From Duganella zoogloeoides (GTDB lineage Bacteria > Pseudomonadota > Gammaproteobacteria > Burkholderiales > Burkholderiaceae_D), in NCBI RefSeq assembly GCF_034479515.1, contig NZ_CP140152.1, forward strand, positions 2,046,001 through 2,110,000: 64,000 nucleotides of DNA, given 5' to 3'. Each line of letters begins with the position of its first letter. The stretch's first letter is position 1. The notes beneath the pieces are model-generated. The model had not been told where the DNA came from, searched no databases, and was given only the letters and a program-made list of their open reading frames with translations. Below are positions 1 to 58,550 of this stretch, in pieces. The position numbers were made by a program, and so were the translations under genes.

Positions 1-677
1 GCCGCGATGTCGGCCACGCCGGTGGCGCGCCAGAGCGTGACAAGGTCGGGCAGGGTGACCTGGAAGCACTCGACCGGCCCCTTGCCAAAGTCGAACTGGC
101 GGATCGTGGCGGCAGGCTGCGCCACCAGCTTGCCGCCGGCGCGCGCCAGCGTCGCGTTGGTCACGCCGGCCATGGCGCTGATGGCCGAACCGCGCGACAG
201 GCCGCCAGCGACATGCATGGCGACCGCGATGCGCACGGGATGGCTGGTTCGCGCCACGGCATGGCCGGCCAGGCAACCGAGCATGGCGACGCTGCCGCCG
301 CTGCCGGGCAACAGCATCACGTTGGCGGCACGGGCTTCGGCGTCGATTTCTTCGGCCAGCCGGTAGCCGTCCAGCTCCGCTGCCACGTCGAGGTAATGCA
401 CGCCATTGCGCATGCCGGCCCGCATCAGCACCCCAGCGGTGGCAGCAAATGGTCCCGCGCAGTTCAACAGCACACCGATGTCCGCCAGCGAGCGGTCGAT
501 CAAGGCATTGTCGTCCAGTGCGAATACCCGGTATTCCACGCCAAGGCTGGCGGCCAGCCCGGCGAGGTCCGGCTGGCTGCGTCCCGCCAGGATCAGCGGT
601 GTGCCTGCCGCTGCGGCGCTCTGCGCCGCCATGCGACCGGTGTAACCGGTCGCGCCATAGATCATCAGTTTTTTCAT
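1..677 (-). CDS. Saccharopine dehydrogenase-like NAD(P)-binding protein, C-terminus off the window
   Basis: The minus-strand frame is open from the ATG at 677 down to the left edge, so about 225 residues are visible and the 3-prime end is missing. The protein begins MKKLMIYGATGYTGRMAAQS, a Rossmann-fold dinucleotide-binding start (GATGYTG) typical of saccharopine dehydrogenase-like and trans-acting enoyl reductase families. It continues with an LNCAGPF motif near residue 72, also typical of these families. The substrate cannot be told from this half. Its ATG overlaps the TGA of the upstream VOC remnant (ATGA), so the two were probably one transcript. An AraC-type regulator is divergent and may have controlled them. 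Confidence 0.8.
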   Translation of the reverse strand, partial: MKKLMIYGATGYTGRMAAQSAAAAGTPLILAGRSQPDLAGLAASLGVEYRVFALDDNALIDRSLADIGVLLNCAGPFAATAGVLMRAGMRNGVHYLDVAAELDGYRLAEEIDAEARAANVMLLPGSGGSVAMLGCLAGHAVARTSHPVRIAVAMHVAGGLSRGSAISAMAGVTNATLARAGGKLVAQPAATIRQFDFGKGPVECFQVTLPDLVTLWRATGVADIA

Positions 678-56840: not shown

Positions 56841-57053
56841 ATGATGAACGATTTGCATTTACTACGTACCATGCAAGAGCACTACCAACGCAGCGACAGC
56901 CACAGCAGTGCCATCGTCGAGCGCGGCATCATCGTGCAGTCCACCTTCAATACCGTGTGCGCCATTGAATACCTGCGTTCGCACAACGTCCAGCCGCACA
57001 TCATCGAACGGGTACTGCTCCATCCCGAGCAAAGACGCCAGCTGGTGCACTAG
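56841..57053 (+). CDS. Small protein of unknown function near an FNR box
   Basis: This 70-residue protein (MMNDLHLLRTMQEHYQRSDS...) is helical, rich in His and Arg, with one Cys (NTVCAIEYLRSHNVQPHIIERVLLHPEQRR). GAGG lies 3 to 6 nt before the tandem ATG codons, favouring the second (56844). I do not recognise a family with known function. The perfect FNR box suggests oxygen-dependent expression. It is followed by the first 198-bp element. Confidence 0.7.
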   Translation: MMNDLHLLRTMQEHYQRSDSHSSAIVERGIIVQSTFNTVCAIEYLRSHNVQPHIIERVLLHPEQRRQLVH

Positions 57054-57092: not shown

Positions 57093-57290
57093 TTATGCAC
57101 ACATCATGATGGCAAGAATGAATTTGAAAATTTTTCGTGTCGAAAAATATATCAATGTAAGTGCTTGATTTATAAGGCGATAAAAACTGCCTGTTGGATG
57201 GGCAGTTTGTTGAACCCCGCGCCGTTACAGGCGCGCTTCGTTGTCAATGGGGAGATATCCACATAGATATCCACAGAGCTTGTGGATATC
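57093..57290 (+). repeat. 198-bp structured element, copy A, with DnaA-box-like sites
   Basis: The element carries TTATGCACA (57093-57101), a variable hairpin ATTTTTCG-TGT-CGAAAAAT (57130-57148), the block TGTAAGT-N2-TTGATTT (57156-57171), hairpin AAACTGCC-N9-GGCAGTTT (57184-57208), hairpin CGCGCC-GTTACA-GGCGCG (57218-57235), TGTCAA (57242-57247), two GATATCCACA boxes (57254-57263, 57266-57275) and TGTGGATATC (57281-57290). The last two boxes form a perfect 10-bp stem with a 5-nt loop. On the minus strand the first GC hairpin followed by T-run could terminate the response regulator transcript. No protein is encoded in 57054-57336. Confidence 0.75.
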
Positions 57291-57336
57291 GTAAAAAACG
57301 CTTGAAAATCCTGTACTTAGCGTTGTATGCGCCGGA

Positions 57337-58239
57337 TCAAAGCGGTTTCTTCAAAGGCTGCATCACGCTGCCCACCACGACGTAGGGCGCGGATGGGTCG
57401 TCCACCACGCTGGCGGTTACCCTCAGCCGCAGTTCCTGACCGTCGCGGCGCCAGCCGGTGACCACGTCGGTCCAGGTTTCGCCGGCGCCCAGTGCACCCA
57501 GGGCGTCGGCCAGCTGGTCGGGCGGGTAGGGTGGCGTGTGCAGCAGGCGCAGGTCGGCGCCGACCAGTTCCTGGCGCGAAAACTGGAATTTGGTGCAAAA
57601 CTTGTCATTAACGCTGGCAATGCGGCCGCGTGCGTCAAACGTGGCGATGACGGCGTGCTGGTCCACGGCGTCGAGCAACCGTCTGGCTTGGTCGAGCTGG
57701 GTTTGCAGGACGGCGGCGCGTTCCTGCGCCTCCTGCAGGCCGGCATAGGCGCGCAGCGACGAGATTACGGTCGTGAACAGCTTGCGCGTGGTGAGGTCGG
57801 TCTTGCACCAGAAATCGTTGATATCGTAGTCGAGAATGATGCTGTGCTCGAGCGCCTGGCCCGGCTGTCCCGTGCGCAGCACGATGCGCACCAGGCTGTT
57901 GTGCAGATTGTCACGGATTTGCCGCGCCACGTTGAGGCCGGCATCGCTGGTTTCCATGATCACGTCCAGCAGCACCAGTGCGATGTCGGGCGTGTTGCGC
58001 AGCGTGGTCAGCGCTTCTTCGCCGCTGTAGGCATGCAGGAAACTCAGGCGCCGTCCACGGAAGCAAACATTGCTAAGTGAAAATTTTGTCACAACGTGGA
58101 CATCGACGTCGTCGTCCACGATCAATACCCGCCACGGCGGTGGCGCGGCAGCGGCCGCCTTGCCGCCCGACTGCGCTTCGGCGGCGACAGCATCGTCGTC
58201 GTCGATCATCCAGTCTGTGTCGTCATCATTCTGATTCAT
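57337..58239 (-). CDS. Response regulator with REC and PAS domains, no DNA-binding output
   Basis: This 300-residue protein has an acidic, Ala-rich N-terminus (1-36). An atypical receiver follows (about 37-165: VLIVDDDVDVHVVTKFSL, phosphoacceptor Asp in ALVLLDVIMETSDAG, LRTGQPGQALEHSIILDYDINDFWCKTDLT). The family resembles REC-DUF3369-type regulators. A helical linker (170-200) leads to a PAS domain (about 203-295, DQHAVIATFDARGRIASVNDKFC). No effector domain is present, so it may relay signals by protein contact. Both 198-bp elements flank the gene. Confidence 0.8.
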   Translation of the reverse strand: MNQNDDDTDWMIDDDDAVAAEAQSGGKAAAAAPPPWRVLIVDDDVDVHVVTKFSLSNVCFRGRRLSFLHAYSGEEALTTLRNTPDIALVLLDVIMETSDAGLNVARQIRDNLHNSLVRIVLRTGQPGQALEHSIILDYDINDFWCKTDLTTRKLFTTVISSLRAYAGLQEAQERAAVLQTQLDQARRLLDAVDQHAVIATFDARGRIASVNDKFCTKFQFSRQELVGADLRLLHTPPYPPDQLADALGALGAGETWTDVVTGWRRDGQELRLRVTASVVDDPSAPYVVVGSVMQPLKKPL

Positions 58240-58352
58240 GCATTGATCCCGAAACGAGTTCTTGGAAGAAAATAGCGAAACTCTGGAGTTACACTATTCC
58301 TCGTATGCGGATTTGTCAAAGAATTCGCTGTCCGATATTCCATGGACCGTAT

Positions 58353-58550
58353 TTATGCACACAAAAATATTTTTCAAGCCGGCTCAAAAACACGCGAGGG
58401 CCTTTCGGCCCGCGCTGTAAGTCATTGATTTTATTCCCCTAAAATTTTGCCTTCCGATTGGGCATTTTGTTGAAACGCCCGCCATTAAAGGCGGTCCCGG
58501 CTGTCAAGTGGCGGTTATTCACAACCTTATCCACAATTCGTGTGGATATC
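58353..58550 (+). repeat. 198-bp structured element, copy B, with DnaA-box-like sites
   Basis: Copy B repeats the order and spacing of copy A at a constant 1,260-bp offset: TTATGCACA (58353-58361), a hairpin with core GGGCC-TTTC-GGCCC (58398-58411), TGTAAGT-N2-TTGATTT (58416-58431), TGCC-N9-GGCA (58448-58464), CCGCC-ATTAAA-GGCGG (58479-58494), TGTCAA (58502-58507), TTATTCACA (58515-58523), TTATCCACA (58527-58535) and TGTGGATATC (58541-58550). TATCCACA and TGTGGATA form an 8-bp stem with a 5-nt loop. Three of the boxes fit TTATNCACA exactly. The element fills most of the 312-bp gene-free stretch 58240-58551; nothing else is visible there except the likely regulator promoter. Confidence 0.75.

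What the first reader, a model, noticed from the sequence alone, without database searches (positions are those of the whole stretch)
57093..58550. Two colinear 198-bp elements with DnaA-box clusters and covarying hairpins
57,093-57,290 and 58,353-58,550 align without a gap over 198 bp at a constant 1,260-bp offset. By hand count about 113 of 198 positions match overall, and 75 of 110 in the second half, with islands of near identity separated by diverged stretches. Shared parts in order: TTATGCACA, a hairpin of different sequence at the same place, TGTAAGT-N2-TTGATTT, TGCC-N9-GGCA, a GC hairpin with 6-nt loop whose stem differs but still pairs (GCGCC/GGCGC versus CCGCC/GGCGG), TGTCAA, and three TATCCACA-type boxes, the last two as an inverted pair with a 5-nt loop. 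Conserved structure with changed sequence means selection. Possible roles are a DnaA-titrating or reactivating locus (datA/DARS-like), a structured RNA, or a multicopy element.
Basis: partly seen in the sequence, partly recalled or inferred. Interest (0 to 1): 0.78.

Follow-up and report, generated by a model that had tools for sequence, protein, structure and literature searches.

The report
Tandem pair of DnaA-reactivating DNA sites
Two copies of an intergenic DNA element in a bacterium of the Duganella group have the layout of the E. coli DARS sites, which recharge the replication starter protein DnaA, and similar elements occur in many related bacteria, so this layer of replication-timing control can be tested beyond E. 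coli.

Summary
In detail: 113 of 198 positions identical at offset 1,260, no gap. The last three boxes of each copy, read on the minus strand, are box I(+)-5 bp-box II(-)-3 bp-box III(-), the core geometry of E. coli DARS1 and DARS2. A perfect IHF site lies 84 bp past the core in both; the conserved TGCC-N9-GGCA palindrome sits at +51, where 20 of 66 core matches in other taxa carry a perfect Fis site; a fourth DnaA box follows at +153. Both copies occur in 29 of 30 loci read in the genus, the 30th being cut by its contig end, and form two lineages older than the Duganella/Janthinobacterium/Massilia split. The genome has two more such loci. A model built without E. coli recognises DARS1 and DARS2 over full length and matches 287 of 396 Pseudomonadota genomes. 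Hairpin covariation is not supported. Best reading: a tandem pair of IHF/Fis-type DARS elements that reactivate ADP-DnaA. Activity is untested. DARS-like sequences in proteobacteria were already reported; the news is the tandem organisation and the fixed core-Fis-IHF-box layout.

The parts
57093..57101 (+). Element A: distal DnaA box TTATGCACA (at +153 from the core when read on the minus strand)
57158..57170 (-). Element A: perfect IHF consensus AATCAAGCACTTA, +84 from the core
57189..57203 (.). Element A: core of the TGCC-N9-GGCA palindrome, at the +51 Fis position (one mismatch to GnnYAnnnnnTRnnC)
   Evidence: position of Fis sites in other taxa; conserved palindrome; letters:
57204..57253 (.). 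Element A: stretch conserved in the genus and partly in the family (TTTGTTGAA, GC-rich inverted repeat, TGTCAA) between the Fis position and the core; role unknown
57255..57263 (+). Element A: core DnaA box III, ATATCCACA
57267..57275 (+). Element A: core DnaA box II, ATATCCACA (3 bp from box III)
57281..57289 (-). Element A: core DnaA box I, ATATCCACA, opposite orientation (5 bp from box II)
58353..58361 (+). Element B: distal DnaA box TTATGCACA
58418..58430 (-). Element B: perfect IHF consensus AATCAATGACTTA, +84 from the core
58449..58463 (.). Element B: core of the TGCC-N9-GGCA palindrome at the +51 Fis position (one mismatch to the Fis consensus)
58464..58513 (.). Element B: stretch conserved in the genus and partly in the family between the Fis position and the core; role unknown
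58515..58523 (+). Element B: core DnaA box III, TTATTCACA
58527..58535 (+). Element B: core DnaA box II, TTATCCACA
58541..58549 (-). Element B: core DnaA box I, ATATCCACA
57337..58239 (-). Gene between the two elements: PAS protein with a receiver-domain match below the Pfam cut-off; not thought to be part of the mechanism

Best explanation
A and B are two tandem DARS-type (DnaA-reactivating sequence) elements of the IHF/Fis-assisted kind. Shown from sequence: a three-box core with DARS geometry (I+ 5 bp II- 3 bp III-), an IHF site at a fixed 84 bp, a Fis-like palindrome at +51, a distal DnaA box at +153, and long-term conservation of both copies. Inferred from E. coli DARS biochemistry: ADP-DnaA binds boxes I and II head to head with box III alongside; IHF bends the DNA and, with the factor at +51 (probably Fis), brings the distal box region towards the core; the strained complex lets go of ADP, and the released apo-DnaA takes up ATP. 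A locus late on one chromosome arm would thus help restore ATP-DnaA before the next initiation. Why there are two copies is inferred only: each is maintained as its own lineage, so they are probably not redundant.
For: Core geometry identical to E. coli DARS1 and DARS2. With both gaps free from 0 to 30 bp, 24 of 30 perfect-box matches in 370 genomes of the class have exactly 5 and 3 bp (gaps counted by eye); 0 reversed-pattern controls. Core-only pattern at up to 3 mismatches in 13 one-contig genomes of the genus: matches at three places in each, plus one stray in G030 and one in G044, 0 controls. At 66 core matches outside Oxalobacteraceae, found without IHF or Fis in the pattern, 41 have an IHF site with at most 1 mismatch at +84..86 (background 0.12 per position and strand), 20 a perfect Fis site at +50/51, 12 both. 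Model R2, built without E. coli, finds DARS1 (27.8 bits) and DARS2 (23.5) over full length, against partial matches of at most 15.5 bits at datA and 11.1 at oriC. Both elements kept in 29 of 30 loci read; A/B split 17+17. The genome has DnaA, IHF-alpha over cut-off and a Fis homolog just under cut-off.
Against: No binding or nucleotide-exchange data. The +51 site in A and B departs from the Fis consensus at one base; no perfect Fis site lies at +51 in the 21 Oxalobacteraceae matches, and only 10 of 21 have one within one mismatch. 25 of 66 matches in other taxa lack the IHF site at +84..86. In E. coli DARS2 the Fis consensus lies beyond IHF (+110) and the IHF sites are at +58 and +74, so the layout is not identical; DARS1 has no IHF site within one mismatch. 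R1's matches to the E. coli cores are weak (16.6 and 13.9 bits; another partial match in this genome has 12.5). DnaA-box clusters can also merely titrate DnaA.
Confidence: 0.8

Rival explanations
1. A datA-type locus or plain DnaA sink: the boxes with IHF capture ATP-DnaA and titrate it or promote its hydrolysis, lowering initiation.
For: Four DnaA boxes per element and an IHF site with boxes on both sides; E. coli datA has boxes and one IHF site (passages of PMC4585315).
Against: The E. coli datA region has the 5/3 core only at 6 mismatches, DARS1 and DARS2 at 2 and 3; R2 matches datA only partially. The head-to-head core is the feature tied to ADP release in the literature (passages of PMC8682772).
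Confidence: 0.1
2. DnaA-controlled regulatory region for the neighbouring PAS/receiver gene.
For: Element B lies just upstream of that minus-strand gene; the gene is found in 29 of 29 loci L003-L031.
Against: Element A lies between two converging 3' ends (genes 56841-57053 + and 57337-58239 -), where no promoter is expected; no sigma-70-like promoter was found inside either element. In one relative (L237) the pair stands 346 bp apart beside the same chrA-type neighbours with no such gene between.
Confidence: 0.05
3. A structured RNA or terminator-bearing transcript family.
For: Conserved inverted repeats; two terminator-like hits inside the elements (57218 and 58448), the 2-kb stretch having 6 against 2.8 (sd 1.7) in shuffles.
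Against: No covariation, no Rfam match at gathering score; the conserved positions are protein-binding consensus sites with fixed spacing.
Confidence: 0.02
4. An auxiliary or former replication origin.
For: DnaA boxes plus IHF also make up E. coli oriC (passage of PMC4245941).
Against: The locus sits at 0.66-0.84 of the arm from the origin candidate in 13 of 13 genomes; the E. coli oriC region lacks the core geometry.
Confidence: 0.02

Closest known systems
E. coli DARS2 (rppH-mutH intergenic region)
   Same: Core boxes I-III with identical orientation and 5/3 bp gaps; an IHF site on the same side of the core and same strand (+74 in E. coli, +84 here, 10 bp or about one helical turn apart); a Fis consensus and further DnaA boxes in the regulatory region. 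The core I used is exactly the stretch that published primers remove as DARS2 boxes I-III (passage of PMC4585315).
   Different: Fis position between core and IHF (+51) here, beyond IHF in E. coli (+110); one IHF site, not two; distal box on the opposite strand at +153 (E. coli +176, plus strand); two copies in tandem
E. coli DARS1 (bioD-uvrB intergenic region; location recalled)
   Same: Same core geometry; matched over full length by model R2
   Different: No IHF site within one mismatch; single core
E. coli datA (downstream of glyVXY; passages of PMC10950094)
   Same: DnaA boxes plus one IHF site
   Different: 5/3 core only at 6 mismatches; only partial R2 matches

Membership tests
DARS | Core of three DnaA boxes I-III, I and II in opposing orientation | tested here: met
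   feature described in passages of PMC8682772
DARS | Box gaps 5 and 3 bp as in DARS1/DARS2 | tested here: met
DARS | Sequence similarity to E. coli DARS recognised by a profile | tested here: met
   R2 full length, E 4.1e-7 (DARS1) and 9.2e-6 (DARS2); R1, made of copies from the genus only, hits both cores weakly, E 0.0011 and 0.0073
DARS (DARS2 type) | IHF site in the regulatory region | tested here: met
   perfect consensus at +84 in A and B
DARS (DARS2 type) | Fis site in the regulatory region | tested here: inconclusive
   Palindrome at the +51 Fis position, one mismatch to consensus in A and B; perfect Fis site at +50/51 in 20 of 66 matches of other taxa
DARS | Stimulates ADP release from ADP-DnaA | not testable with these tools
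   biochemical assay needed
datA | DnaA boxes flanking an IHF site with datA spacing, activity in DnaA-ATP hydrolysis | tested here: inconclusive
   Boxes do flank the IHF site, but datA gives only partial R2 matches (15.5 and 11.2 bits) and the 5/3 core only at 6 mismatches; datA spacing not compared; activity not testable
Structured RNA | Compensatory changes in stems | tested here: not met
oriC | Location at the replication origin | tested here: not met
   0.66-0.84 of the arm from the origin candidate in 13 of 13 genomes; the origin itself is inferred

The most novel reading that the evidence does not exclude
The arrangement core - Fis (+51) - IHF (+84..86) - distal DnaA box is the ancestral DARS of Beta- and Gammaproteobacteria; E. 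coli DARS1 (IHF site decayed) and DARS2 (sites rearranged) are derived outliers. Oxalobacteraceae multiplied it: in this genome three loci and about nine units, including an old tandem pair whose two members have kept separate identities, which implies that reactivation of DnaA is shared between specialised units.
Probability: 0.45. Interest if true: 0.75.

Novelty: new variant of a known kind. Interest (0 to 1): 0.6.

Why it matters
The DARS mechanism has been worked out in E. coli. A model that matches 287 of 396 sampled Pseudomonadota genomes, with fixed IHF and often Fis spacing in the taxa looked at, gives exact sites to delete or footprint in other bacteria, and asks whether the E. coli layout is the exception. 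The tandem pair offers a natural test of why a chromosome keeps several reactivation sites.

Tried and rejected
Covarying hairpins: tested on 58 copies and rejected; folding z-scores weak. Structured RNA: Rfam at gathering score 0 hits; a permissive scan of 2 kb gave 6 hits at E 1.4-4.3, far under their gathering scores. Origin at dnaA: one search placed the elements relative to dnaA; dropped after an oriC-like region was found about 0.33 Mb away, whose homologs balance the arms to within 2.1% in 13 of 13 genomes against 8-14% for dnaA (8 of the 13 lengths known only to 0.1 Mb). GC skew is noisy and gave no clear answer there. My guess that the gene beside it was mnmG was wrong: it is a GGDEF protein. 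Equal orientation relative to the fork in 13 of 13 genomes and opposite arms for the pair and the exbB-xseA cluster in 13 of 13 are not used as evidence, since inversions symmetric about origin or terminus preserve both. Literature: seven searches. 'DnaA-reactivating' with 'betaproteobacteria' and 'DnaA-reactivating sequence' with 'alphaproteobacteria' gave 0 papers; 'DARS1, DARS2, homologous, Burkholderia' gave 2, seen as a listing, not opened. A review passage (PMC10380432) says DARS-like sequences are conserved in many proteobacteria, citing a paper that I take from recall to be Fujimitsu 2009; that paper is not held. So I do not claim first sight of DARS outside E. coli relatives. Rows dropped: R2's alignment A6 uses 40 of the 42 non-Oxalobacteraceae matches with an IHF site at +83..86 (two of three near-identical L170 copies left out) and 7 of 21 Oxalobacteraceae matches, so its IHF part is there by selection; L026 was left out of the pair alignment, and a 50-bit filter dropped weak overlapping hits.

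Full report
What is there. Two 198-bp intergenic stretches align without a gap at offset 1,260 with 113 of 198 identities; 20,000 shuffles reached at most 74. The window lies at 2,046,001-2,110,000 of a one-contig 6,321,842-base genome.

Anatomy. Each copy, read on the minus strand, starts with three DnaA boxes: I (+), 5 bp, II (-), 3 bp, III (-). E. coli DARS1 and DARS2 have the same order, orientation and gaps. After box III come, at +51, the palindrome TGCC-N9-GGCA; at +84 a perfect IHF consensus; at +153 a box TTATGCACA. E. coli DARS2 has one-mismatch IHF sites at +58 and +74, 3 bp apart as the literature says of IBS1 and IBS2 (passage of PMC4245941); the second is on the same strand as here, 10 bp nearer. 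The 35-bp core used for DARS2 is exactly what published deletion primers bracket as boxes I-III (passage of PMC4585315). The place of DARS1 (bioD-uvrB) is recalled.

Is the geometry special? With perfect boxes and both gaps free from 0 to 30 bp, 27 of 370 genomes of the class gave 30 matches, 24 with exactly 5 and 3 bp (counted by eye), none in the reversed control (this genome itself has none, as its box I reads ATAT). In E. coli the core occurs at 2 mismatches in DARS1, 3 in DARS2, 6 in the datA region, and not within 6 in the oriC region.

Is the rest conserved? Of the 66, 41 carry an IHF site with at most one mismatch at +84 to +86, 20 a perfect Fis site at +50/+51, 12 both; background is 0.12 IHF sites per position and strand, and 20 of all 46 perfect Fis sites within about 300 bp are those at +50/51. 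Perfect boxes on the minus strand number 23 at +160 to +179 in other taxa; in Oxalobacteraceae all 17 perfect non-core boxes lie at +152 to +154. In the 21 Oxalobacteraceae matches no perfect Fis site lies at +51; 10 have one within a mismatch. By tblastn at E 1e-8, DnaA is encoded in none of the 80 loci (some are short), PriA in 7, HemE in 2, XseA in 1.

Spread. A search with copy B hit 59 of 60 genomes of the genus, the window's own included; G052 had none. The 30 best-scoring loci of that search (L002-L031, own included) were read: 29 hold both copies; L026 ends inside one. Model R1 matches 115 of 116 genomes of the family and 159 of 200 of the order at E <= 0.01, own included. The listed family rows, a capped list that I copied by hand, name 96 genomes; 50 have a same-strand pair within 5 kb, 0.35-3.6 kb apart, and 46 show no pair among the listed rows; which of these pairs are this locus was checked only for the loci. 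R2, made from 47 sequences without E. coli, matches 287 of 396 genomes of the phylum at E <= 0.001. By my hand count of that listing, 168 of 171 are of the same class or nearer and 119 of 225 of other classes, taking the 89 unlisted misses to be of other classes, as the sort order suggests; hits outside the class were not examined. E-values of both models are rough (short calibration).

R2 on E. coli. In one search of the four E. coli regions DARS1 scores 27.8 bits and DARS2 23.5, both full length; a second place in the DARS2 region 16.1, datA 15.5 and 11.2, oriC 11.1, all weaker and none over the core end to end.

Two lineages. In a FastTree tree of 17 pairs (10 of the 29 pairs of the genus, 4 Janthinobacterium, 2 Massilia, 1 other), labelled by position, all 17 A copies and all 17 B copies separate, support 0.87. 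The duplication therefore predates these genera and both copies were kept. The PAS/receiver gene was found in 29 of 29 loci L003-L031 and in named Janthinobacterium and Massilia loci, but not between the copies in L237.

Other loci in this genome. A pair lies between hemE and priA with the same anatomy, and a cluster of five between an exbB-like gene and xseA. R2 finds nine such units in the fetched loci, the weakest at E 0.0022; some reverse-strand overlaps of the same cores score similarly, and the oriC-like region gives partial matches at 0.01. Genome-wide 7 pass E <= 0.001. Relative to the oriC-like region at 5.960-5.963 Mb, the window pair lies at 0.66-0.84 of an arm, and the matches that I take for the hemE-priA and exbB-xseA loci at 0.058-0.082 and 0.447-0.558, in 13 of 13 one-contig genomes; the flanking genes were checked only in the own genome. 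The pair and the second cluster are on opposite arms in 13 of 13; in E. coli DARS2 also lies on the other replichore from DARS1 (passage of PMC4585315).

Machinery. The genome encodes DnaA, IHF-alpha (155 bits, cut-off 120) and a 77-aa Fis homolog (117.6 bits against a cut-off of 122). The gene just before it looks like dusB (recalled, not searched).

The stems do not covary, and no Rfam family reaches its gathering score in the window. Element A lies between converging genes, which speaks against a promoter role.

Mechanism. From E. coli work (passages of PMC8682772, PMC4245941, PMC5742627), ADP-DnaA on boxes I and II meets head to head and, helped by IHF and Fis at DARS2, releases ADP. I infer the same here. 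Shown: sites, spacing, conservation. Inferred: binding, ADP release, timing, and the reason for two copies.

Novelty. A review passage mentions DARS-like sequences in many proteobacteria (PMC10380432), while a passage of PMC4245941 places the DARS2 core and Fis among gamma-proteobacteria related to E. coli. Two searches of the held library pairing DARS with Beta- or Alphaproteobacteria gave 0 papers; one with Burkholderia gave 2, not opened. I therefore file it as a new variant: DARS in an old tandem pair, with a fixed IHF and Fis-position layout that differs from E. coli DARS2.

Noticed in passing
L044:380-760 and L044:2630-3060 (G000:C1 about 5,960,400 and 5,962,700): oriC-like region in two copies flanking a GGDEF gene: DnaA boxes, TACTACTACTATT repeats like DnaA-trios (recalled name) and AT-rich tracts, about 0.33 Mb from dnaA. 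Homologs in 13 of 13 one-contig congeneric genomes balance the two arms to within 2.1%.
   Followed up: partly
L053:9109-9680 (G000:C1 about 6,149,110-6,149,680): hemE-priA intergenic pair of DARS-type units; priA also lies in 7 of 80 core-pattern loci, so this may be an old DARS site.
   Followed up: partly
L063:8600-9540 (G000:C1 about 4,492,600-4,493,540): Five DARS-type cores in under 1 kb between an exbB-like gene and xseA, several with an IHF site close to the core, a layout unlike the window pair.
   Followed up: partly
Other classes of the phylum: R2 also matches 119 of about 225 genomes outside the class (hand count), some strongly (one family, f230, down to E 1e-14); not examined.
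   Followed up: no
window 57204-57253 and 58464-58513: TTTGTTGAA, a GC inverted repeat and TGTCAA are conserved in the Oxalobacteraceae copies aligned but not in the wider set; function unknown.
   Followed up: no
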